Below are positions 34,342 to 45,148 of a stretch of 64,000 bases of DNA, piece after piece. Position numbers and translations under genes: made by a program. The stretch's first letter is position 1. The number at the start of each line of letters is the position of its first letter. The notes beneath the pieces are model-generated. The model saw only the letters and a program-made list of their open reading frames with translations, was not told the origin of the DNA and ran no database searches. Where the stretch lies: positions 2,356,001 through 2,420,000 of the forward strand of contig CP102281.1 of NCBI GenBank assembly GCA_025150425.1, read 5' to 3'. Origin of the DNA: [Eubacterium] siraeum (lineage in GTDB: Bacteria; Bacillota; Clostridia; Oscillospirales; Ruminococcaceae).

Positions 34342-35718
34342 ATGAAAAACACAGAAAAAACCATGGATAAGCTGGTCGCTCTCTGCAAGGGCAGAGGCTT
34401 TATATATCCCGGCAGTGAGATATACGGAGGACTTGCAAACACATGGGATTTCGGACCTCTCGGCGTTGAGCTGAAGAACAACATCAAGTCCGCATGGCGT
34501 AAAAAATTCATACAGGAGTGCAAGTACAACGTAGGTCTTGACAGTGCTATCCTCATGAACCCTCAGACATGGGTAGCATCGGGTCATATCGGCGGATTTT
34601 CCGATCCCCTTATGGATTGCAAGGCTTGTAAGACACGTCACAGAGCGGACAATCTTATTGAGGACTTTGACGGCACAAACTGTGCAGGCTGGTCAAACGA
34701 GCAGATGATGGATTATATCCGTGAAAAAGGCATCACCTGCCCCAACTGCGGCAAGGCTGATTTCACAGACATAAGACAGTTCAACCTTATGTTCAAGACA
34801 TTCCAGGGTGTTACAGAGGACTCTAAGAGCGAGCTTTACCTCCGTCCCGAAACAGCGCAGGGTATCTTCGTAAACTTTATGAATATCCAGCGTACTACCC
34901 GTAAAAAAGTACCTTTCGGTGTTGCACAGGTTGGTAAGTCATTCAGAAACGAGATTACTCCCGGCAACTTCATCTTCCGTGTAAGAGAATTTGAGCAGAT
35001 GGAACTTGAATTCTTCTGCAAGCCCGGCACAGACCTTGACTGGTTCTATTTCTGGAAGGACTACTGCAAGAAGTGGCTCCTGTCCCTCGGCATAAACGAA
35101 GAAAACTTAAGACTGCGTGATCACGATCAGGAAGAGCTTTGCTTCTACTCAAAGGCTACAACCGACTTCGAATATCTGTTCCCGTTCGGCTGGGGCGAGC
35201 TTTGGGGCGTTGCGGACAGAACCGACTACGACCTTACACAGCACATCAAGACAAGCGGTCAGAAGATGGAATATTTCGATCCCGAAACAAACGAGAAGTA
35301 CGTTCCTTATGTTATCGAACCCTCGCTCGGTGTTGAGCGTCTGTTCCTTGCAGTTATAACTGAAGCTTATGACGAAGAACAGCTTGAGGACGGCACAACA
35401 AGAAACGTTATGCACTTCCACCCCTACTTAGCTCCTGTCAAGGCGGCAGTTCTGCCCCTGTCAAAGAAACTCGCAGACAAGGCAGGCGAGATTGCAGACG
35501 AGCTGTCAAAGTACTTCTGCGTTGACTATGACGATGCAGGCGCTATCGGCAAGAGATACAGAAGACAGGACGAGATCGGTACTCCCTTCTGCATCACATA
35601 CGACTTTGACAGCGTTGAGGACGGTTGCGTAACAGTCCGTGAACGTGACTCTATGAAGCAGGAAAGAATGCCTATCGCAGATGTGAAGAAGTACATCGAG
35701 GACAGAATTGCGTTCTGA
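34342..35718 (+). CDS. glyQS: Glycyl-tRNA synthetase, single-chain (eukaryotic/archaeal-type)
   Basis: 458 residues, class II synthetase of the alpha2 type. Motif 1 region [13 protein letters not shown], motif 2 [21 protein letters not shown]-type region ([23 protein letters not shown]), and motif 3 [22 protein letters not shown] and CPNCGK give an insertion with Cys residues. The C-terminal anticodon-binding domain is [20 protein letters not shown] onwards. No T-box leader is visible in the 147 bp upstream. A terminator follows. Confidence 0.96.
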
Positions 35719-35790: not shown

Positions 35791-35819
35791 TTGCATTTCT
35801 TCCCCCTTTATGCTATACT
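35791..35819 (+). promoter_or_regulatory. Promoter of the cobalamin-riboswitch operon
   Basis: TTGCAT (35791-35796), 17 bp, TATACT (35814-35819), ending about 17 bp before the riboswitch P1 stem. Confidence 0.8.
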
Positions 35820-35836
35820 TATCCTTAACCGAATAT

Positions 35837-35960
35837 CGAAAATACGGTACGAAAGGCTTTTTGCCCGGTAGGTAATAGGGAATCCGGTGAGAATCCGGAG
35901 CAACCGTCATTACTGTATCTGAGCCTATGCTCACAAGTCAGAATACCCCCGTATTTTTCG
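35837..35960 (+). promoter_or_regulatory. Cobalamin riboswitch
   Basis: The conserved core is clear: GGGAATCCGGTGAGAATCC, then GGAGC, ATTACTGTA, and a B12-box-like AAGTCAGAATACC at about 35935-35947. P1 closes CGAAAATACGG (35837-35847) with CCGTATTTTTCG (35949-35960). An intrinsic terminator follows at 35986, so adenosyl- or aquo-/methylcobalamin binding would be expected to lower transcription of the downstream genes. Confidence 0.93.
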
Positions 35961-35985
35961 GCATTGTCTCTTGGACGAGGAAGAA

Positions 35986-36030
35986 GTACAGCCGATCTTC
36001 AGCTAAGGCTGTACCTTTATGCTTTTTTTG
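35986..36030 (+). terminator. Riboswitch expression-platform terminator
   Basis: GTACAGCC (35986-35993) pairs with GGCTGTAC (36007-36014), followed by a T-rich tract ending in seven Ts. It sits between the cobalamin aptamer and the first gene, consistent with transcriptional attenuation. 36031-36142 is AT-rich leader with no further feature. Confidence 0.85.
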
Positions 36031-36142
36031 CATATCCGTATGGCTTATGTTTGCTGTGCTTAAAGATCAGTTGTGCTTTCACTTTTTTTGGTGAAGGCAT
36101 TTTTTATTGCCGTTTTTCGTATTTGTTTACGGAGGTGACGTT

Positions 36143-36400
36143 ATGGCGGACGAAAAAATGAGCAAGGCTGTCGCTATGCTTTGCGAAAAGTATGAACAGC
36201 TTGGCACTCTGCCCAAACGCTCCGATTTTACTCCAAGCGAAGTCTGCTTTATAAAGCAGAAGCTGGGTCCGTGGACAAGGGCTCTTGAAGCCGCAGGGCT
36301 GAAAGAGCCTCCTGCGGTTTCAGCAAAGGAGAAAAGCCGTGAAAAGCGTGAACGCTCCAGGCAAAGAAGAAAAGCGGCAAAACGCAGATTAGACGGTTAA
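36143..36400 (+). CDS. Small basic protein with homing-endonuclease-associated (HNH) repeat
   Basis: 85 residues. Residues 8-52 fit the homing endonuclease-associated repeat (PF18780-type) pattern: LCEKYEQLGTLPKRSDFTPS, then IKQKLGPWTRALEAAGL. That repeat binds DNA in intron-encoded nucleases and in some regulators. The remaining 33 residues are strongly basic (KSREKRERSRQRRKAAKRR). No nuclease domain. The start at 36143 follows GGAGGTGA; 12 upstream in-frame codons are unlikely. It is the first gene behind the cobalamin riboswitch and only 36 bp before the surface-protein gene. A regulator or nucleic-acid-binding role in the B12 operon is inference. Confidence 0.75.
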   Translation: MADEKMSKAVAMLCEKYEQLGTLPKRSDFTPSEVCFIKQKLGPWTRALEAAGLKEPPAVSAKEKSREKRERSRQRRKAAKRRLDG

Positions 36401-36436
36401 GCCTTACGGCAAAAAAGAATAAAGGAAGGTAAAACT

Positions 36437-39400
36437 ATGACAAATGTAAAGAAATTTACAGCAAAAGTGACAGCTTTACTGCTGGCGCTTTCACTGGCAC
36501 TGCTGTCAGTACCGCAGGTGAGCTTTACTGTATTTGCCGATGATGACCTCGGAAGCGTCCGTGTTATTGTAGAAAACACAACGTTTACCGAAGCGGTCAG
36601 CGGCGGTAACGCTCCTGCGTGGACAGGTACCAAGGTCGACAAGTGGGTATCGCTTGACAAGACCTCAAGTGCAATGACCTGCATAAAGGACGCTATCGAA
36701 AGCTCCGGCTTTACTCAGAAGGGCGCAGACGATGGCTACATAAGCGAGATCGCAGGCCTTGCGGCGTTTGACGGCGGCTCGATGAGCGGCTGGATGGGTA
36801 CGCTCAACGACTGGTTTACAAACGAAGGCTTCACAGCCTATACCGTTGCTAACGGCAAGCTTGCAAGCGGCGATGAGATCCGTATGCAGTACACTATGGA
36901 CTGGGGTGCTGACCTCGGCAGTGACTGGAGCGGTACAGATACATCGCTTAAAGCGATAAGCAGCGATTACGGCACACTTTCCCCCGAATTCAGTGCAAAG
37001 ACCTATAATTATACTCTTACAGTTCCTTTCGGCACAAAGAGCATCAATTTCCGTCCTACCGCACTGAACAAGAATTTCAAGACGGTAAGCAAAATCGGCG
37101 ACAAGACGCTGAGCCTTACAAAACCGACTGAAATAAAGGACGGCGATATTATCACCGTTACTGTAGGCGAGGGTGCAACAGCAAGCACTTATAAGGTAAC
37201 AATAAAGGAGGGTGCAAGACCCGCCGCACGTTTTGACAGCTTTGCACTTTCGGCTTTCTCGCTTGACGGCTGGGACAATGACGCTTTCGACCCTGAAAAG
37301 CTCGAATATGATGTAAAGATAAAGTCTTACAGCACATCATCTTTCTATATCAACAGCGGAACCAAGTTCAACAAGGACCTGCTGAAGTGCTATGCGGTAT
37401 ACACCGATATAAACGGAGTTGCACAGAGAAACGAGATAAAGTCCGGCAGCTTCAACAGCATTTCTAATATTCCTTTCGGCTTGACTAAGCTGATTTTAGA
37501 GCTTTGCTACATTGACGATGAAAGCATAAAGACGCAGTATGTGTTCAACATAACACGTCCCTATGACTACACTGCGGAAATCGCAAGCACAAGCGGCATC
37601 ACGCTTGTTCCTGCCGGCAGAGAGCTGTATGCGACAAAGTACAACGGCTTTGCAGAGGGAACGGTTTTCAGAAATGACGAAAATGACAATGTGACCGATA
37701 CGACAGGCACAAACGCAGAATGCCACAGCTACACAGCCTATGTTTTGGGAGGCACCGACAGCGTTGCACTTACTCTCAAGGGCAAAACCGCAAACGTTCA
37801 TTTCAGAGCGAAGGCTGACGGCGAATATACAGAGCTTAAAAGCGGCGAAACAACTCCCGCATATTCCTTCGGCAAGGACGGCACTGTTACAGTATCAATA
37901 GATGCTGTTTCGGACGGCGATTATCTTACAGACAAGTTTGATGATGCAGACAAGATAACAAGCTACAAAATAAAGCTTGTAAAGGCTGACGTTTCTATAA
38001 AGAACGTACACTTTACAGAGCTTAAAAGCGAACACGGCGATATGTATCCCGCATTCGACCCGTCACTTCTCAGCTATAATATAGTTATAGCAAATGACGC
38101 AGAATTCCCCACAGTATATTTCAAGGTTGCCAACGGTTGCACAGTTAAGATAGGCAACGATGCCGCAACAGCAGACGAAAACGGCGTTTACAGCCTTGTT
38201 ACCAAGAGCGCAAACACTACTGTAACGGTAACAGACGGCACTCTTTCAGAAAGCTATACTGTCAAGGCTACAAAGAGAAGCAAGTATGACGTACCCGACA
38301 AGGTCGTTGATTATCTTTGCATCAACAGCCAGTACACCAACGTTTCCTACGGTGTAGGCCCCGAGCAGACGCTCGCAGGCACTATAAAATCACTCGGTAA
38401 CTTCGGCGGTTATATCACATATTACTATGAAAACCCCGTAACAGACGACCCCTCAAACCCCTACGGCCTTGACTTCTACGCTTACGGCAACAGCTTTGTA
38501 AGCGGCGGAAGTGCGGCTGAAAGCGGACAGGTATATGTTTCTGAGGACGGCAAAACATGGTATGCGCTCGCAGGAAGTGAGCATTTTGAAGATACGACCA
38601 TCACCGATTACGAAGTGACATACAAAAAGACAGCCGACGGTAAAACAAGCTGGACAGACAATCAGGGCAACTCAAACGACGGCTCAAAGCAGACAGGCAG
38701 ATGGGTTTCACCCAGCGTTTATTATATGAACGATCTTGCAAAGGGCGATACTGTCACACTCAGAGGCGTTGTTATCCCCGGTGTTCAGGGCAGTATACAG
38801 GGCGACAGCTCTACAGCTTCCTTTGTAGGCACGACAAGGTTCGGCTATGTTGACTACTTCAAGAACGGCACGATAGGCACTAATGTAAACGCATACAGCG
38901 AAAATGCCGAATCAAACGGTTTCGACTTAAAGTGGGCGGTAGATGAAAACGGCAACCCCGTTACATTCAAAAACGGCGTTCACTATATAAAGATACAGAC
39001 GGCAAGCAACATCTGGGCAGGCATATTCAACGAGAAATCGACAGAGGTTTCTTATGTTGTAAGAACAGCTGCAAACGAGCAAGAGGTCGGCACGACAGCG
39101 CTTCCCGGAAAAATAGTCTTAACAGACGCAAACGGCAAGACAATAAAGGAAATCACTCCCGATGATAACGGTGTTTACGAGATAAGCACAGGCATCGAGG
39201 AAAGCGTGAACGTTTCCGTATCCGGCGCTGACGATGATAACATTTATATCAACAATCAGCGTGTAGCATCCGGCACAGAGGCTAAAATCGCACTTAATCA
39301 GTCTGAAATAAAGGTTGTCAGAATAATCGTTCAGAACGGTGAAAAACAGCCCGTATACGCTTACTTAAAGCTCGTTCCCGATGATGTAAAGGCGGCTGAG

Positions 39401-40795
39401 CAGGTCGAAGAACTTATTGACGCTATAGGCGATGTAACGCTCGACAGTTATGACAGCATCACAGCGGCAAGAGCGGCTTATGACAAGCTCAGCGACAACG
39501 CAAAGACGCTTGTAGGAAACTACGAAACCTTAACAGCCGCAGAAGAAGCTCTCGCTAAGGCTGAGGCTGACGTTATAAGCAATGCGATAAAGGCAATAGA
39601 CGCAATCGGCAAGGTGACCGCTGACAGCAAGGATAAGATTGAAAATGCAAAGGACGCTTACTCGGCAGTTCCCGAGCGTTTAAGAGATAAAGTCACAAAT
39701 TCGGATACTCTTGACAAGGCAACAGAAAGATTTGCCGTTATTAACACGATAAAGCAGGCAGGCACAAAGAGTAAGGAGCACTTCGACACTGTTCTCGGTA
39801 CTCTTGCGGATAACAATATCTACCCCGTTCAGTCTATCGGCGGTGAATGGTCGGTTATCGCACTCGCAAGAGCAGGAAAGCTCTCTGCCGACAAGGCGGC
39901 AAAATACTACAGCGAGCTTTGTGAAGCAGTAAAGGCTAACGGTTCAGACAGACTTTCGGACAGAAAGCCTACGGAGAACGCAAGAGTTATAATCGCTCTG
40001 TCCTCACTCGGAAAGAATTCCGCAGACATCGCAGGCCATAACCTGCTGAGCGGTCTTGACGATATGGACTATATCACATCGCAGGGTATCAATGCGGTTA
40101 TATTCTCACTCATAGCATTCGACACTACAGATTACAGCGCAAAGACGCACGATGAGCTTATCGCTTATATTGTTGACAATATGACGGGCAAGGGCTGGGC
40201 GCTCGCCGGCGATACCGCAGATGTTGACCTTACGGCTATGGCTATACAGGCTCTCGCTCCCTATGCGGCTGACGAGAAGGTAAATGCGGCTATAGACAGC
40301 GGTCTTGAGTTCCTTGCAGAATCTCTTGACGAGAACGCAAGATATGCAAACGGCAGTGAAAGCACCTCGCAGGTACTTATCGCACTTGCCGCTCTCGGCA
40401 TCGACCCGCTTACAGATTCAAGATTCATCGTTGACGGCATCACGCTTATCGACGCACTTGAAAGCTACGCTACAGAAAACGGCTACAGCCACACACTCGG
40501 CGGCGAAGAAAACTATATGGCTACCGAGCAGGCGGCACTCGCTCTTACAGCTTATGAGCTTTCAAAGGACGGCTCTTCACTTTACGAAATGTCTGCGAAG
40601 GCTGAGCCGACAGAACCCGAAAATCCCGATACGCCCGCACAGCCCGGCGATTCTGTAAAGCCCGGCGACTGCTCGGGCAAGCCCGAAGATAAAAACGATC
40701 CCATAAATCCCGGTACAGGCGTACTTGTAACAGGCGGTATGGCAGTTCTCATCTCAGGCGCAGTTATGCTTATTTCGAAGAAAAAGCGCAAATAA
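36437..40795 (+). CDS. Transcobalamin/intrinsic-factor-like surface protein: DUF4430, beta-sandwich repeats, alpha/alpha toroid, sortase signal
   Basis: 1452 residues. Signal peptide 1-34 (cleavage near VFA-DD). A DUF4430 domain follows (about 36-160: VRVIVENTTF, MSGWMGTLNDWF, SGDEIRMQYT). Cadherin-like beta-sandwich domains lie at about 172-255, 262-380 and 520-615, then a large beta domain (about 620-860) and FIVAR-like helices (about 990-1110). Residues 1115-1385 form an alpha/alpha toroid of the terpenoid-cyclase/cobalamin-binding fold (GGEWSVIALARAG, TENARVIIALSSLG, TSQVLIALAALGIDP, MATEQAALALTAYEL). A Pro-rich linker, sortase motif NPGTG (1424-1428), membrane segment and KKKRK tail end the protein. 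DUF4430 plus toroid are the two domains of animal intrinsic factor and transcobalamin, here in reverse order, behind a B12 riboswitch: a cell-wall-anchored corrinoid-capture protein is the best reading. Confidence 0.85.
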   Translation: MTNVKKFTAKVTALLLALSLALLSVPQVSFTVFADDDLGSVRVIVENTTFTEAVSGGNAPAWTGTKVDKWVSLDKTSSAMTCIKDAIESSGFTQKGADDGYISEIAGLAAFDGGSMSGWMGTLNDWFTNEGFTAYTVANGKLASGDEIRMQYTMDWGADLGSDWSGTDTSLKAISSDYGTLSPEFSAKTYNYTLTVPFGTKSINFRPTALNKNFKTVSKIGDKTLSLTKPTEIKDGDIITVTVGEGATASTYKVTIKEGARPAARFDSFALSAFSLDGWDNDAFDPEKLEYDVKIKSYSTSSFYINSGTKFNKDLLKCYAVYTDINGVAQRNEIKSGSFNSISNIPFGLTKLILELCYIDDESIKTQYVFNITRPYDYTAEIASTSGITLVPAGRELYATKYNGFAEGTVFRNDENDNVTDTTGTNAECHSYTAYVLGGTDSVALTLKGKTANVHFRAKADGEYTELKSGETTPAYSFGKDGTVTVSIDAVSDGDYLTDKFDDADKITSYKIKLVKADVSIKNVHFTELKSEHGDMYPAFDPSLLSYNIVIANDAEFPTVYFKVANGCTVKIGNDAATADENGVYSLVTKSANTTVTVTDGTLSESYTVKATKRSKYDVPDKVVDYLCINSQYTNVSYGVGPEQTLAGTIKSLGNFGGYITYYYENPVTDDPSNPYGLDFYAYGNSFVSGGSAAESGQVYVSEDGKTWYALAGSEHFEDTTITDYEVTYKKTADGKTSWTDNQGNSNDGSKQTGRWVSPSVYYMNDLAKGDTVTLRGVVIPGVQGSIQGDSSTASFVGTTRFGYVDYFKNGTIGTNVNAYSENAESNGFDLKWAVDENGNPVTFKNGVHYIKIQTASNIWAGIFNEKSTEVSYVVRTAANEQEVGTTALPGKIVLTDANGKTIKEITPDDNGVYEISTGIEESVNVSVSGADDDNIYINNQRVASGTEAKIALNQSEIKVVRIIVQNGEKQPVYAYLKLVPDDVKAAEQVEELIDAIGDVTLDSYDSITAARAAYDKLSDNAKTLVGNYETLTAAEEALAKAEADVISNAIKAIDAIGKVTADSKDKIENAKDAYSAVPERLRDKVTNSDTLDKATERFAVINTIKQAGTKSKEHFDTVLGTLADNNIYPVQSIGGEWSVIALARAGKLSADKAAKYYSELCEAVKANGSDRLSDRKPTENARVIIALSSLGKNSADIAGHNLLSGLDDMDYITSQGINAVIFSLIAFDTTDYSAKTHDELIAYIVDNMTGKGWALAGDTADVDLTAMAIQALAPYAADEKVNAAIDSGLEFLAESLDENARYANGSESTSQVLIALAALGIDPLTDSRFIVDGITLIDALESYATENGYSHTLGGEENYMATEQAALALTAYELSKDGSSLYEMSAKAEPTEPENPDTPAQPGDSVKPGDCSGKPEDKNDPINPGTGVLVTGGMAVLISGAVMLISKKKRK

Positions 40796-40816
40796 GTAAA
40801 ACTATTATGTAAATGC

Positions 40817-40863
40817 TTGTTCCGTACCTGTTTTTATGATAAAATAGGTGCGGAACAATTTTT
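40817..40863 (+). terminator. Terminator (and overlapping weak promoter) between the two DUF4430 genes
   Basis: TTGTTCCGTACCT (40817-40829) pairs with AGGTGCGGAACAA (40846-40858), followed by five Ts. TTGTTC-17-TAAAAT (40817-40845) within it could serve as a weak promoter for the next genes, so the downstream ECF genes may be only partly under the riboswitch. Confidence 0.7.
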
Positions 40864-40890
40864 ACATAACCGATATTTCACGGAGAAAAA

Positions 40891-41745
40891 ATGAAAGCTT
40901 TTTTTGATAAATACAAATATATACTCGGTCTTGGGCTGGCTCTTGTCGCTGTGGTGATAATTGCGGTAGTTTCCGCCGCTATGGGAAAAGATGCCGCCGA
41001 AAACAGCGGTATATCATACGTTACCCCCGAAACATCATCGTTTACAACCGTAGAAAACCTTGTCGCAACAACCGCTTTTCAAACAGACGGCAATTCTCAG
41101 ACAACGCCCGCAACAACCGTTACGGACACTTCTTCACAAACCTTACCTGAAAGCGAAAAGCCTAAAACAACGGCAATAACCTCTGTCGCATCAACATCAT
41201 CTACCGCCGCAGACATTTCAAAGCCAACCGAAAAGCACGTTTTCACATCCGCCCCGACATCTTCGGCAAGTCCGGCATCTTCAAAAGTCACAACAGTATC
41301 AACCGCTTCATCTGTAATATCAACGACCCCGAAGCCAGACAAGCCGATAAAGAAATATGACAACACCTGCACATTCGTTATAGAGTGCAAAACCATACTC
41401 AACAACAAGGATAAACTGAAAAAAGGACTTGAAAAGTACGTTCCCGATGATGCCGTAATATTCAGCGGAACGGTCGGATTCGACAGCGGTGAAAGCGTAT
41501 ACGATATACTCCGCCGTATCTGTGACGAGAACAGCATTCAGATGGAGGCAAGCTATACCCCTGCGTTCAGCTCATACTATGTCGAGGGTATCAACAACCT
41601 TTATGAATTCGACTGCGGACAAGGCTCAGGCTGGATGTACAGTGTAAACGGCGTTTTCCCGAACTACGGCTGTTCATCATACAAGCCAGTAAACAACGAC
41701 AAGATAGCGTTCCGCTATACCTGCGAGCTTGGCTATGACCTTTAA
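40891..41745 (+). CDS. Membrane-anchored DUF4430 (transcobalamin-C-like) protein
   Basis: 284 residues. A signal-anchor (residues 10-31, YILGLGLALVAVVIIAVVSA) is followed by a Thr/Ser-rich linker of about 110 residues, then a single DUF4430 domain (about 160-284) with TCTFVIECKTILNN, DSGESVYDILRRICDEN, GSGWMYSVNGVFPNYGCSSY and NDKIAFRYTCELGYDL. This is the fold of the C-terminal beta domain of intrinsic factor, which closes over cobalamin. It precedes the EcfT gene by 15 bp and is placed to hand ligand from the cell-wall protein to the ECF transporter (inference). Confidence 0.85.
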   Translation: MKAFFDKYKYILGLGLALVAVVIIAVVSAAMGKDAAENSGISYVTPETSSFTTVENLVATTAFQTDGNSQTTPATTVTDTSSQTLPESEKPKTTAITSVASTSSTAADISKPTEKHVFTSAPTSSASPASSKVTTVSTASSVISTTPKPDKPIKKYDNTCTFVIECKTILNNKDKLKKGLEKYVPDDAVIFSGTVGFDSGESVYDILRRICDENSIQMEASYTPAFSSYYVEGINNLYEFDCGQGSGWMYSVNGVFPNYGCSSYKPVNNDKIAFRYTCELGYDL

Positions 41746-41760
41746 AACTAAGGAGCAACA

Positions 41761-42633
41761 ATGGAAAGAACACACCCTGTAACAGCGGCAATGTATTTTC
41801 TGTCAGTGATACTGATAACCGCAATAGTGCAAAGCCCCGTCTTTATGGCGGAGGCTCTTGTCTGCTCTGCCGTTTTTGCTTTTTTACTGAACGGAAAAAC
41901 CGCCGCAAGAACGCTTTTTGTAATGCTGCCTATGGCACTGCTTGCGGCGGTTATAAATCTTCTGTTTTCAAACAGAGGCATAACCGTGCTTGCAAAGTTA
42001 CCGAGCGGCAACAGTATCACACTTGAAACGCTTATTTTTTCACTGTTTACAGGCGCTATGACAATATCGCTCGTTATGTGGTTTATCGGACTTAACAAGT
42101 GTATGACAAGCGACAAAACGGTATATCTTCTCGGAAAAGCACTGCCGTCACTCGCTTTGCTGTTGTCAATGACACTGCGTTCAGTGCCTATGTTTGCAAG
42201 ACGGGCAAAGCAAGCGGCGGCGGCTCAGCGTTTTGTTGGGAACGATATATACGAGGGCGGCTTGCGAAGCCGTATCAGAAGCGGTGTTCACGTTCTCTCC
42301 GTTGCGGTAACGGATACCCTTGAGCATAGCGCATATACCGCCCGCTCTATGAAATACAGAGGTTACGGTACAGCAAAACGTACAGCCTACAGCATATTCA
42401 GATTCGCACCGTCCGACTTTATTATAATGTCTGTTACCGTGATATGCACAACCGCAATTATTATTCTTTTTGCAAGCGGTAAAGCCTATTATCTCTATTA
42501 TCCAGAATTTATCCTGCCGCTGACTGCTTTCGATATTTCTGCGGATATTTTCTGGCTCATACTCTGTGTAACACCTGTTGCAGCCGAGCTTTATTCACGT
42601 TTTAAACGGAGGGAAAGAAATGGAACTTTATAA
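41761..42633 (+). CDS. Energy-coupling factor transporter transmembrane subunit EcfT
   Basis: 290 residues, CbiQ/EcfT family. About six hydrophobic segments; a long cytosolic coupling region carries the two Ala-Arg type motifs used to dock the ATPases (ARRAKQAAAAQRF and YTARSMKYRGYG). EcfT links ATP hydrolysis to toppling of the S component in the membrane. Ribosome site AAGGAGC follows the DUF4430 gene; the 3' end overlaps the next gene by 14 bp, so the products are made together. Confidence 0.9.
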   Translation: MERTHPVTAAMYFLSVILITAIVQSPVFMAEALVCSAVFAFLLNGKTAARTLFVMLPMALLAAVINLLFSNRGITVLAKLPSGNSITLETLIFSLFTGAMTISLVMWFIGLNKCMTSDKTVYLLGKALPSLALLLSMTLRSVPMFARRAKQAAAAQRFVGNDIYEGGLRSRIRSGVHVLSVAVTDTLEHSAYTARSMKYRGYGTAKRTAYSIFRFAPSDFIIMSVTVICTTAIIILFASGKAYYLYYPEFILPLTAFDISADIFWLILCVTPVAAELYSRFKRRERNGTL

Positions 42634-45148
42634 TATTTCAAATCTGTCATATTCCTATCCCGGCTCGGATATAAACGCACTCTCCGATATTTCGCTTAAA
42701 ATAAACAAAGGTGAATTCGTAATACTCTGCGGCAGCTCGGGAAGCGGAAAATCCACGCTTTTAAATCTTATGAAAGCGCCTGCCGACGCAGGAACGCAAA
42801 AAGGAAAAATTTCTTTCAGCGGTCATTTTGCCGGCTTTGTCACGCAGTTTACCGACGAGCAGATCGTCTGCGACAAGGTTTGGCACGAGCTTGCCTTCGG
42901 TGCGGAAAGCATAGGACTTTCACAAAACGAAATACGCTCGCAGGTTTCCCAGACTGCTTTGTTCTTCGGCATAGAGGACTTGCTGTACTGCGACTGCGAC
43001 AAGCTCTCGGGCGGTCAGAAGCAGATGATTAACTTAGCGTCTGTAATGGCTATGAATCCCGATGTACTGCTCCTTGACGAGCCGCTGTCACAGCTTGACC
43101 CTATCGCATCCACGCAGTTTATTTCACTGCTTGTAAGAATAAACAAGGAGCTTGGTACGACAGTGATTGTTGCGGAGCATCAGCTCGGCGGTCTTTTGTC
43201 CGTTGCAAAGCGTGTGGTTATGCTCGACAACGGCAAGGTGTGTCACGACGGCGACGCAAGCTCTCTTACAAAGCATCTGTCAGAAAACAATCACCCTATG
43301 CTTTTTGAAATGCCGGCAGGTGTAAGAGCAAGCGCATCTGTCAGCAATGTTCTTCCTCTGCTTGACGTTCCCTCCGCTAAGGACTGGTATACGTCCTACG
43401 GCGAAAATCACAGGCTCGTATCACCTGCCGCCGCAGACTATACGCTGTCGGAGGAAAGCTGTATATCCGTTAAAAATCTGTCTTTCGGCTATAAGAACAG
43501 CAAAAGAGATATTATAAGAAACCTTTCGCTTGACATAAAGCAAGGGAGCATAACCGCAATAGTGGGCGGCAACGGCGCAGGAAAATCGACCCTGCTAAGC
43601 CTTATCTGCGGTACGCTCAAGCAAAACAGCGGAAAAATAACGATAAACGGCGGAAAGATAGGTTTTCTTCCGCAAGACCCTACCCTGCTTTTCAATAAGG
43701 AAACGCTCAGAGAAGAATTTGCCGATAATGCCGACGAGATAGCCGCCGCATTTAATCTTACGCACCTGCTGTCACGTCACCCGTTTGACTTATCCGGCGG
43801 TGAAAGGCAGAAGGCGGCGCTCGCAAAGCTCGTTTCCTACGGTGCGGATATACTTCTTCTCGATGAGCCGACCAAGGCGGCGGACGCAGTATATAAGCAG
43901 ATGTTCTCGGCATTATTGAAACAGCTTAAAGCAGACGGGAAAACGATTGTGATTGTCAGTCACGATATGGATTTCTGCGCTGAAACGGCGGATATATGCG
44001 CCCTGCTTTTTGACGGCGAAATAAGCGTATCTCTGCCGCCGTCACAGTTCTTTTCCGATTCCTCGTTTTTCACTACAGACAGTGCGAAAATCGCCAAAAA
44101 CGTATGCGATAATGTTTACACTGTCGCAGGGCTTATAGCTTCTCTCAGAGGAGTGGCTGAAAACTACGGCGATCTCTCCGGACGTTTTCACGTCATAAAA
44201 GGCGATAAGCCCGACACAGCAGTACCGCAACGCAAAAAACGCAAAAGGCTCTCGGCTTTCCGAAAGGTAATGCTTTCGCTCGGCAGTGTCGGATTTGTTT
44301 TTATGCTTTTAGCCGGTACCGGCATATTCCCTTTTGAGATACCGTCAGAGCCGTTCTGGCTGCAATATGCGTTGCTGTGCGTTCCTATGATTATGCTTAT
44401 TATCGGCGTTGCCCCGAAAAACTCAATGGCAAAGCCGCCCGTAACCGCAAAAAAAGTAACTCCGTCCGATATTGTCGCAGGCGTTATAACCGCCGTTCTT
44501 ATTCCTTTCACAGTGATACTCGGCACACTTTTTGTCCCTAACGGCACAAGAAAGCATCTGCTGATAATTCTTGCTGTGCTTGTCGAGTGCCTTGCCGCTT
44601 TCTTTATCAGCTTTGAAAAAAAGAAGCCGTCCGCAAAGGATATAGCGGTGCTTGCCGTGCTTTCTGCGGCGGCTGTCGCAGGAAGGGAGCTTTTCTTTAT
44701 GTTTCCGCAGTTCAAGCCCGTTGCCGCAATCGTTATCATAAGCGGAACGGCGCTCGGTGCACAGGCAGGCTTTCTTGTCGGTGCGGTGTCTATGCTGATA
44801 TCGAATATGCTGTTCGGTCAGGGTATGTGGACGCCGTGGCAGATGTTTGCAATGGGGCTTCTTGGCTTTTTTGCAGGTATCATCTTCTCGAAAAAGCGCA
44901 ACACGCTCGCCCTTTGTATCTACTCCTTCCTGTCAGTCCTCGTTATTTACGGCGGAATAATGAATATATCAAGTGTGCTTACCTACACGACCGATATAAA
45001 CTTACAGACAATTACCGCATATATCGTTTCAGGCATACCCTTTGACCTTATCCACGCAGTATCCACAGTAATATTTGTGCTTATAACAGGCGATGCACTA
45101 TTGAAAAAATGTTGCCGTCTGAGAGTAAAATTCGGATTATTTCAGTGA
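42620..45148 (+). CDS. Fused ECF transporter: two ATPase domains plus membrane S-like component
   Basis: 842 residues. ATPase 1 (1-235): Walker A CGSSGSGKST, signature LSGGQKQM, Walker B VLLLDEPLSQLD. ATPase 2 (about 285-490): Walker A GGNGAGKST, signature LSGGERQK, Walker B ILLLDEPTKAAD. From about 550 come eight or so hydrophobic segments of which the last part (FFMFPQFKPVAAIVIISG, GAQAGFLVGAVSMLISNMLFG, WTPWQMFAMGLLGFFAG) is an ECF S component of the type found beside DUF4430 genes and related to the cobalamin S component CbrT. Start at 42620 follows GGAGGGA; 14 codons upstream overlap ecfT. EcfA1, EcfA2 and S are usually three proteins, so this fusion is unusual. Confidence 0.88.
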   Translation: MELYNISNLSYSYPGSDINALSDISLKINKGEFVILCGSSGSGKSTLLNLMKAPADAGTQKGKISFSGHFAGFVTQFTDEQIVCDKVWHELAFGAESIGLSQNEIRSQVSQTALFFGIEDLLYCDCDKLSGGQKQMINLASVMAMNPDVLLLDEPLSQLDPIASTQFISLLVRINKELGTTVIVAEHQLGGLLSVAKRVVMLDNGKVCHDGDASSLTKHLSENNHPMLFEMPAGVRASASVSNVLPLLDVPSAKDWYTSYGENHRLVSPAAADYTLSEESCISVKNLSFGYKNSKRDIIRNLSLDIKQGSITAIVGGNGAGKSTLLSLICGTLKQNSGKITINGGKIGFLPQDPTLLFNKETLREEFADNADEIAAAFNLTHLLSRHPFDLSGGERQKAALAKLVSYGADILLLDEPTKAADAVYKQMFSALLKQLKADGKTIVIVSHDMDFCAETADICALLFDGEISVSLPPSQFFSDSSFFTTDSAKIAKNVCDNVYTVAGLIASLRGVAENYGDLSGRFHVIKGDKPDTAVPQRKKRKRLSAFRKVMLSLGSVGFVFMLLAGTGIFPFEIPSEPFWLQYALLCVPMIMLIIGVAPKNSMAKPPVTAKKVTPSDIVAGVITAVLIPFTVILGTLFVPNGTRKHLLIILAVLVECLAAFFISFEKKKPSAKDIAVLAVLSAAAVAGRELFFMFPQFKPVAAIVIISGTALGAQAGFLVGAVSMLISNMLFGQGMWTPWQMFAMGLLGFFAGIIFSKKRNTLALCIYSFLSVLVIYGGIMNISSVLTYTTDINLQTITAYIVSGIPFDLIHAVSTVIFVLITGDALLKKCCRLRVKFGLFQ

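What the first reader, a model, noticed from the sequence alone, without database searches (positions are those of the whole stretch)
35791..45148. Transcobalamin/intrinsic-factor-like vitamin B12 capture system in a Gram-positive, behind a cobalamin riboswitch
Seen: a cobalamin riboswitch core with an intrinsic terminator, then a 1452-aa surface protein with an N-terminal DUF4430 domain, a C-terminal alpha/alpha toroid and an NPGTG sortase signal, a second membrane-anchored DUF4430 protein, EcfT, and a fused EcfA-EcfA-S protein. Known: animal intrinsic factor and transcobalamin consist of an alpha/alpha toroid plus a small beta domain related to DUF4430, and ECF S components of the CbrT group carry cobalamin. 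Inference: the wall-anchored protein captures B12 or another corrinoid and passes it through the membrane-anchored DUF4430 protein to the ECF transporter, a Gram-positive counterpart of both the host carriers and BtuG/BtuB.
Basis: partly seen in the sequence, partly recalled or inferred. Interest (0 to 1): 0.9.

Follow-up and report, generated by a model that had tools for sequence, protein, structure and literature searches.

The report
Transcobalamin-like vitamin B12 uptake operon
A Gram-positive bacterium that seems to need outside vitamin B12 carries, under a B12-sensing RNA switch, an operon for surface proteins built from the same two folds as our own B12 carriers plus a B12-type membrane pump; such systems were predicted in 2007, and the RNA switch, the pump type and an extra small gene now firm up that prediction.

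Summary
A cobalamin riboswitch (35828-35967, the only RF00174 match in this genome) precedes a 1452-aa wall protein (DUF4430, Cadherin-like, alpha/alpha toroid, NPGTG tail), a membrane-anchored DUF4430 protein, EcfT and a fused EcfA-EcfA-S protein. The modelled DUF4430 domain matches haptocorrin, intrinsic factor and transcobalamin far above other folds. The toroid shares their fold, but also that of terpene cyclases. The S domain's only PDB sequence match is the proven B12 component CbrT. DUF4430 genes recur behind cobalamin riboswitches (36 of 90 matches, 0.15 expected; 37 of 49 named loci with enough upstream DNA). The genome has a MetH-like gene and no match to the MetE, CobS, BtuR or BtuC families. 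So this is very probably a corrinoid uptake system. It is not a new kind: Burroughs et al. 2007 (PMC1796856) predicted B12-scavenging toroid/transcobalamin-like proteins with CbiO/CbiQ operons in low-GC Gram-positives. I add the riboswitch link, CbrT, a 'split transcobalamin' model (nine fused proteins put toroid and DUF4430 either side of a membrane hairpin) and a small HNH_repeat gene that, in a minority of loci including this one, directly follows the riboswitch. Binding and relay are untested.

The parts
35828..35967 (+). Cobalamin riboswitch aptamer (short form without the peripheral arm)
   Evidence: RF00174 40.4 bits, E=9e-7; only one in the genome; arm missing in alignment A2
36073..36100 (+). 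Terminator-like hairpin with T tail, candidate expression platform
   Evidence: consensus scan (3 such sites found in the region on both strands, 1.1 expected); leader fold z=-4.1. Not evidence of function by itself
36143..36400 (+). Small HNH_repeat protein (85 aa, basic tail), first gene behind the riboswitch
   Evidence: PF18780 30.0 bits, cut-off 26; homologues behind riboswitches
36437..40795 (+). P0001: 1452-aa secreted wall protein: DUF4430, Cadherin-like domains, alpha/alpha toroid, sortase-type tail
   Evidence: translation, Pfam, jackhmmer domain limits
36569..36916 (+). N-terminal DUF4430 (transcobalamin beta-domain-like), P0001 residues 45-160
   Evidence: PF14478 E=2e-7; jackhmmer 64.5 bits
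39722..40651 (+). Alpha/alpha toroid, P0001 residues 1096-1405
   Evidence: AF2 pLDDT 92, pTM 0.87; fold searches
40706..40792 (+). NPGTG sorting signal, hydrophobic stretch, basic tail
   Evidence: sequence; hydrophobic stretch from residue 1427; 4 sortase-family matches in the genome
40891..41745 (+). P0002: membrane-anchored DUF4430 protein (DUF4430 domain 41341-41742)
   Evidence: PF14478 73.4 bits; AF2 pLDDT 96; matches transcobalamin/IF/haptocorrin
41761..42633 (+). P0003: EcfT (CbiQ family)
   Evidence: PF02361 32 bits, cut-off 25
42620..45148 (+). P0004: fused EcfA-EcfA-S; S domain at about 44453-45145 is CbrT-like
   Evidence: ABC_tran x2, PF07155/PF12822; only PDB match 6fnp_A, E=3e-8; family profile E=5e-16

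Best explanation
This is a riboswitch-controlled importer for cobalamin or related corrinoids. When intracellular cobalamin is low the leader allows transcription (inferred from the riboswitch class). The wall protein P0001 captures the corrinoid with its toroid; the DUF4430 domain of the membrane-anchored P0002, or P0001's own N-terminal DUF4430, closes over it as the beta domain does in transcobalamin. P0002 hands the corrinoid to the CbrT-like S domain of P0004, and EcfT with the two EcfA domains drives import for MetH. Shown by computation: riboswitch, domain folds, CbrT relationship, conserved operon, no match to the MetE, CobS, BtuR and BtuC (FecCD) families. Inferred: corrinoid binding, toroid and DUF4430 working as a 'split transcobalamin', hand-over, direction and effect of regulation.
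For: Riboswitch. DUF4430 model: the 19 Foldseek matches with E<=0.001 are transcobalamin, intrinsic factor, haptocorrin (17) and one R. gnavus protein (2 chains of 3u7z, titled putative metal binding); VIA Z 14.3 (haptocorrin, 102 aa, 2.1 A) and 13.7 (intrinsic factor) against 7.7 for the best other fold. Toroid fold includes haptocorrin Z 19.2, intrinsic factor 19.0. S domain: sole PDB match is CbrT, phmmer E=3e-8; family profile 4.6e-16, next 0.0025; 6FNP is the ECF-CbrT B12 transporter. Context: 36 of 90 DUF4430 matches, in 33 of 73 genomes, have a listed same-strand riboswitch within 8 kb upstream; where a riboswitch lies within 15 kb the nearest one is upstream on the same strand in 37 of 37; 0.15 expected by random placement. 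In 80 named loci EcfT in 74, EcfA in 71, S in 64, toroid in 64, riboswitch upstream in 49 of 80, or 37 of 49 with at least 9 kb upstream held. Fusion: eight proteins and L121 join toroid, two hydrophobic helices and a P0002-type DUF4430. Need: one B12-binding match, in a MetH-like protein; no CobS, BtuR, FecCD, MetE.
Against: No binding or transport data. The toroid is closer by Z to terpene cyclases (23.1) than to B12 carriers (19.2), and no Foldseek match for it reaches E 0.001; by sequence its profile matches cyclases, not carriers. The Pfam name of the S-domain match is riboflavin S component and NCBIfam's best sub-threshold match is folate type. 53 of 90 DUF4430 matches have no listed riboswitch within 15 kb (the list was cut at its weak end); of 49 named loci with long upstream DNA 9 have none, 2 only downstream and 1 only on the other strand. 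Both other genomes of the genus in the survey lack a riboswitch match; one lacks DUF4430 and the other has only a sub-threshold hit. The MetH assignment rests on 617 of 802 residues and is below that family's cut-off.
Confidence: 0.87

Rival explanations
1. Same machinery, but the physiological ligand is another corrinoid or precursor (cobinamide, pseudocobalamin) rather than cobalamin.
For: CbrT also transports cobinamide (passages of PMC5997447). Gut habitats hold many corrinoids (recalled). Some sister operons sit beside corrin synthesis genes: L012 carries CbiD, cobaltochelatase-like genes (below the family cut-off) and CobN.
Against: This genome has no CobS match, so completing unfinished corrinoids looks unlikely; only CobS and BtuR of that pathway were tested.
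Confidence: 0.25
2. The toroid and P0001 are not part of the corrinoid site: P0001 is an adhesin, enzyme or scaffold, and only P0002 plus the ECF transporter handle B12.
For: Loci exist without a toroid: small riboswitch-DUF4430-S-component loci; surface proteins with PQQ_2 matches instead of toroids in L012, L013, L018. The toroid resembles terpene cyclases.
Against: Toroids occur in 64 of 80 named loci; nine proteins fuse toroid and P0002-type DUF4430; the toroid carries D-x-D-x-T with no D at the fourth position in any of 54 rows, unlike the DxDD motif of class II cyclases (recalled).
Confidence: 0.15
3. The system carries a different vitamin (folate or riboflavin type) and the riboswitch association is incidental.
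For: Pfam PF07155 label riboflavin; NCBIfam FolT below its cut-off.
Against: The association recurs in 33 of 73 DUF4430 genomes and 49 of 80 named loci; the S profile matches CbrT and only one other solved chain, weakly; a profile of seven S components of the minimal loci also matches CbrT alone, E=5e-20.
Confidence: 0.03

Closest known systems
Predicted B12-scavenging SLBB (transcobalamin-like clade) / toroid operons of low-GC Gram-positives (Burroughs et al. 2007, PMC1796856)
   Same: Surface SLBB + alpha/alpha toroid in either order, Gram-positive anchor, second paralogous SLBB protein, CbiO-like ATPase and CbiQ-like membrane protein, hosts usually lacking key B12 synthesis enzymes (section 7 part 1 of 2)
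   Different: In what I read (section 7 part 1 of 2, section 8, passages) I saw no CbrT-type S component and no small HNH_repeat gene; the word riboswitch has 0 occurrences in the main text. That work is prediction too
ECF-CbrT of Lactobacillus delbrueckii (PMC5997447; PDB 6FNP)
   Same: CbrT-like S domain, EcfT, two EcfA
   Different: The passages describe a shared (group II) ECF module and the S component as the binding subunit; here the module sits in one operon, fused A-A-S, with extracellular DUF4430/toroid proteins
Animal transcobalamin, intrinsic factor, haptocorrin
   Different: In P0001 the order is reversed and far apart, and a second beta domain sits on another protein; anchored, not secreted; toroid sequence is outside PF01122
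BtuG/BtuB of Bacteroides (PMC6143338, search listing only)
   Same: Cell-surface capture of B12 before import (analogy)
   Different: Gram-negative TonB system and an unrelated capture protein (BtuG is a beta-propeller: recalled). PQQ_2-matching surface proteins occur in L012, L013, L018, not found in P0001 by Pfam

Membership tests
SLBB transcobalamin-like clade (DUF4430) | Beta-grasp fold with an inserted beta-hairpin after the helix | tested here: met
   P0002 model: helix 53-63 followed by strands 68-73 and 78-84; matches to transcobalamin/IF/haptocorrin
Transcobalamin / intrinsic factor family | Alpha/alpha toroid fold | tested here: met
   AF2 model and fold searches; fold shared with cyclases and epimerases
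Transcobalamin / intrinsic factor family | Sequence membership in PF01122 (Cobalamin_bind) | tested here: not met
   No window match; 1 of 54 toroids at E=0.013
Transcobalamin / intrinsic factor family | Toroid followed by beta domain in one protein | tested here: not met
   P0001 is reversed; met in L016, L029, L044, L045, L046, L048, L049, L050, L121 with a TM hairpin between
Transcobalamin / intrinsic factor family | Binds cobalamin | not testable with these tools
   needs binding assays or a ligand-bound structure
ECF transporter with CbrT-type S component | EcfT, two EcfA, S component related to CbrT | tested here: met
ECF transporter with CbrT-type S component | ATP-driven cobalamin uptake | not testable with these tools
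   needs transport assay
Cobalamin riboswitch RF00174 | Score above gathering threshold | tested here: met
   40.4 vs 31.5 bits
Cobalamin riboswitch RF00174 | Peripheral arm (GCCACTG...GGGAAGG stretch in the relatives) | tested here: not met
   absent in window and L029; present in the other 22 of 24 rows of A2
Class II terpene cyclase (squalene-hopene type) | DxDD acid motif (recalled) | tested here: not met
   fourth position never D in 54 rows
BtuG | Beta-propeller (recalled) | tested here: inconclusive
   no propeller family in P0001 by Pfam; the middle of P0001 was not folded

The most novel reading that the evidence does not exclude
Clostridia run a 'split transcobalamin': a wall-, S-layer- or dockerin-attached toroid and a membrane-tethered DUF4430 jointly clamp the corrinoid outside and pass it to a CbrT-type ECF pump, giving an ECF transporter dedicated extracellular capture proteins. 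In a subset of these operons, this one included, the first gene is a single-copy, about 85-aa HNH_repeat nucleic-acid-binding protein that tracks cobalamin riboswitches and is an unrecognised part of B12 control.
Probability: 0.32. Interest if true: 0.78.

Novelty: new member of a known kind. Interest (0 to 1): 0.63.

Why it matters
Many gut bacteria that need B12 must scavenge it, yet a 2019 survey calls the transporters for B12 and its precursors in numerous gut genomes an open problem (PMC6593275, passages). This locus gives Gram-positive bacteria, many of the named relatives being from gut and rumen samples, a concrete, testable capture-and-import route. It fits the published proposal that our own B12 carriers came from such bacteria, and it adds extracellular capture proteins to a transporter class whose membrane S component is described as the binding subunit.

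Tried and rejected
Mapping riboswitches onto the 80 named loci by coordinates within each genome mixed different contigs and was dropped; a covariance model (R1) searched directly on the loci replaced it. R1 holds only 13 base pairs and is mostly a sequence model; its E-values are rough. Aligning single domains to the fused L121 protein failed for the toroid rows (59 misplaced), so the two domains were folded separately and their mutual placement is untested. P0002 alone against PDB sequences gave only chance-level matches, as did the DUF4430 profile; the link to transcobalamin rests on structure. My first wording that in most loci P0002 is the toroid's only possible partner was wrong and was recounted. 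No riboswitch was found near the HNH_repeat gene of G030. Nine paper searches bearing on bacterial DUF4430, transcobalamin-like or CbrT-linked carriers turned up the 2007 prediction and, among the rows listed (at most 20 per search; held more papers than were listed), no experimental test. on HNH_repeat found one paper, on modelling repeat proteins (listing only). Only open-licence PMC papers were searched, so this shows absence in that library and those listings only. BtuM, PduO and NrdJ were not looked for in the genome.
Full report
WHAT IS THERE. The window is 2356001-2420000 of a single-contig 2,694,742-base genome. Between glycyl-tRNA synthetase (34342-35718) and carbohydrate-type ABC permease genes on the other strand lie: a cobalamin riboswitch at 35828-35967 (RF00174, 40.4 bits, E=9e-7), a terminator-like hairpin at 36073-36100 in a leader that folds more stably than shuffles (z=-4.1), a small gene at 36143-36400, the 1452-aa P0001, the 284-aa P0002, EcfT, and a fused EcfA-EcfA-S protein. 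No other RF00174 match was found in the genome. The riboswitch lacks the peripheral arm seen in 22 of 24 aligned riboswitches; L029 lacks it too.

STRUCTURE. The DUF4430 domain of P0002 was folded with 57 relatives: pLDDT 96.1, pTM 0.89, with strand pair 68-73/78-84 after helix 53-63. Foldseek puts transcobalamin, intrinsic factor and haptocorrin in 17 of the 19 matches with E <= 0.001, the other two being chains of one Ruminococcus gnavus protein, 3u7z. VIA-align gives Z 14.3 (haptocorrin, 102 residues, 2.1 A), 13.7 (intrinsic factor, 109 residues, 2.5 A), 11.9 (3u7z), then 7.7 for the next fold. The P0001 toroid (residues 1092-1410, 53 relatives) folds at pLDDT 92.0, pTM 0.87. Its Foldseek matches are headed by transcobalamin (E=2.8e-3), mixed with squalene-hopene and drimenyl cyclases, farnesyltransferase and complement domains; none reaches E 0.001. 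VIA ranks drimenyl diphosphate synthase highest (Z 23.1), with haptocorrin at 19.2 and intrinsic factor at 19.0. A profile of the toroids matches cyclases, not carriers, by sequence at E <= 1, and 1 of 54 toroids touches PF01122 at E=0.013. So the toroid has the carriers' fold but is no closer to carriers than to cyclases. All 54 rows keep D173, yet none has D at position 174, so a DxDD motif (recalled as the cyclase motif) is absent.

TRANSPORTER. The S domain (44453-45145) has one PDB match at E <= 10: 6fnp_A, E=3.3e-8. 6FNP is the ECF-CbrT B12 transporter (PMC5997447, passages). A profile of 37 S domains gives 6fnp at 4.6e-16 and one other chain, 4hzu_S, at 0.0025. Against: Pfam's name for the match is riboflavin type, above cut-off, and NCBIfam's best is folate type, below cut-off.

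SURVEY IN RELATED GENOMES. In 148 genomes of the family, DUF4430 occurs in 73 (90 matches) and RF00174 in 100; 150 riboswitches were listed and the weakest were cut from the list. Of the 90 DUF4430 matches, 36 (33 genomes) have a listed riboswitch upstream on the same strand within 8 kb, one more at 8.7 kb, and 53 none within 15 kb; in all 37 with one near, the nearest is upstream on the same strand. Random placement in 2.3 Mb genomes predicts 0.15. The genomes are related, so the counts are not independent.

NAMED LOCI. On the strand of the match, EcfT is found in 74 of 80, EcfA in 71, S in 64 and a toroid in 64; many contigs are short. S is fused to EcfA-EcfA in 35 and separate in 29. A model of 24 riboswitches, searched on these loci, gives an upstream same-strand riboswitch (E <= 0.01) in 49 of 80, and in 37 of the 49 loci with at least 9 kb upstream; of those 49, 2 have one only downstream, 1 only on the other strand, 9 none. 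Whole-genome RF00174 searches of the same 80 loci (40 and 40 handles) found a match in 36 of 40 and 37 of 40. L105 and L025 appear to be the same contig (both 97,040 bases), and L082 and L097 share a genome, so the surveys overlap slightly.

HOW IT LIKELY WORKS. Of 59 named loci with a full-length toroid ORF, 23 carry a DUF4430-like hit in the toroid ORF itself, 13 have a further DUF4430 ORF, and in 23 the P0002-type protein is the only DUF4430 in the locus. So in those 23 a transcobalamin-like sandwich would have to form between two proteins; in the others it need not, and P0001 of the window has its own DUF4430. Of 79 P0002-type ORFs without a toroid, 75 have a hydrophobic stretch within the first 60 residues. 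In eight loci of the first survey (L016, L029, L044, L045, L046, L048, L049, L050) and in L121, toroid and P0002-type DUF4430 are one protein in transcobalamin order, separated by two hydrophobic helices. Such a hairpin would put both domains outside the cell side by side. I therefore infer that toroid and DUF4430 clamp the corrinoid together and that the DUF4430 side delivers it to the S domain. Minimal loci were seen as well: in L030-L043, a riboswitch is followed by a small DUF4430 protein (129-197 aa as called), an S component related to the window's is found in 13 of 14, and EcfT or EcfA in none of the stretches held. Seven of these S components, aligned, match CbrT alone, E=4.9e-20. This makes DUF4430-CbrT the core pair and the toroid an addition.

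NEED FOR B12. The genome has one PF02310 match. The 617 of its 802 residues that I held match MetH best (415 bits, below the full-length cut-off). There is no match to MetE, CobS, BtuR/CobA or FecCD/BtuC, while each of these searches rang in 7 to 13 of 14 control genomes. It looks like a B12 auxotroph whose methionine synthase depends on this importer; PduO, NrdJ and BtuM were not tested.

A CONSERVED SMALL GENE. The 85-aa gene at 36143-36400 (PF18780 HNH_repeat, 30 bits) was not in the finding. Among 120 loci searched (L012-L131), 23 have clear homologues (E <= 1.5e-22) and one a weak one: 17 of the 80 named loci and 6 of the 40 of the first set, so a minority. With the window and L137, the conserved core starts 73-368 bases behind a same-strand riboswitch in 22 of 25; the exceptions L110, L121 and L065 lie before the toroid gene instead. 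For L051 and L094 the riboswitch match is weak (E=0.005; 0.004). In the 148 genomes the gene is found in 10, one copy each: seven of the nine strong ones sit behind a riboswitch (own genome, G059, G066, G094, G106, G108 by model R1, G120), G071 behind a weak one, and G030 before a Peripla_BP_2/FecCD/ABC operon without a riboswitch match. The tenth (G006, E=5e-4) is weak. In G066 (L137) it follows a riboswitch with no transporter recognised next to it, so it seems to track the riboswitch rather than the transporter. I read it as a nucleic-acid-binding regulator; that is a guess.

ANCHORING. Of 64 full-length sister toroid ORFs 7 show an xPxTG motif in the last 60 residues, and many others end in a hydrophobic stretch with a basic tail. 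Of ten scanned, four carry type I dockerins (L079, L059, L060, L106) and two S-layer homology domains (L114, L125). Surface proteins of L012, L013 and L018 match PQQ_2 propeller families instead (L012 below the cut-off).

PRIOR ART. Burroughs et al. 2007 (PMC1796856; passages including the abstract, section 7 part 1 of 2, and section 8 seen) predicted that SLBB proteins of low-GC Gram-positives, fused to toroids in either order, with wall anchors, a second SLBB protein and CbiO/CbiQ genes, scavenge B12, and that animals acquired transcobalamin from them. What I did not see there: riboswitches, the CbrT identity, the membrane-hairpin fusions and the small gene.

VERDICT. Observation confirmed; interpretation supported by computation; a new member of a predicted kind for which I found no experimental test in the papers listed. 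Interest 0.63.

Noticed in passing
window 36143-36400: Single-copy 85-aa HNH_repeat (PF18780) gene right behind the riboswitch; clear homologues in 23 of 120 sister loci and 10 of 148 genomes, mostly directly behind cobalamin riboswitches.
   Followed up: partly
L137 11468-12046 (-): In genome G066 the riboswitch plus HNH_repeat gene stand without a recognised transporter next to them; the next gene is a TIM-barrel protein.
   Followed up: partly
L138 6676-10308: In genome G030 the HNH_repeat gene precedes a Peripla_BP_2/FecCD/ABC transporter operon (siderophore or B12 class) with no riboswitch match.
   Followed up: partly
L030-L043: Minimal loci: riboswitch, small DUF4430 protein and, in 13 of 14, a CbrT-like S component without EcfT or EcfA in the stretch held.
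   Followed up: partly
L012 670-3309, L013 644-3175, L018 10855-13494: Surface protein behind the riboswitch matches PQQ_2 beta-propeller families (L012 below cut-off) in place of a toroid; L012 continues with CbiD, cobaltochelatase-like genes and CobN.
   Followed up: partly
L079, L059, L060, L106 (dockerin); L114, L125 (SLH): Toroid proteins carrying dockerin or S-layer homology domains, suggesting B12 capture tied to cellulosome-like or S-layer surfaces.
   Followed up: no
window 35828-35967; L029 11334-11467: Cobalamin riboswitches lacking the peripheral arm; ligand preference may differ from the full form.
   Followed up: no
genome 2441782-2445747 (outside the window): Four sortase-family matches within about 4 kb.
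   Followed up: no
PDB 3u7z: A solved Ruminococcus gnavus protein titled 'putative metal binding' has the DUF4430/transcobalamin beta-domain fold and may be a corrinoid binder.
   Followed up: no
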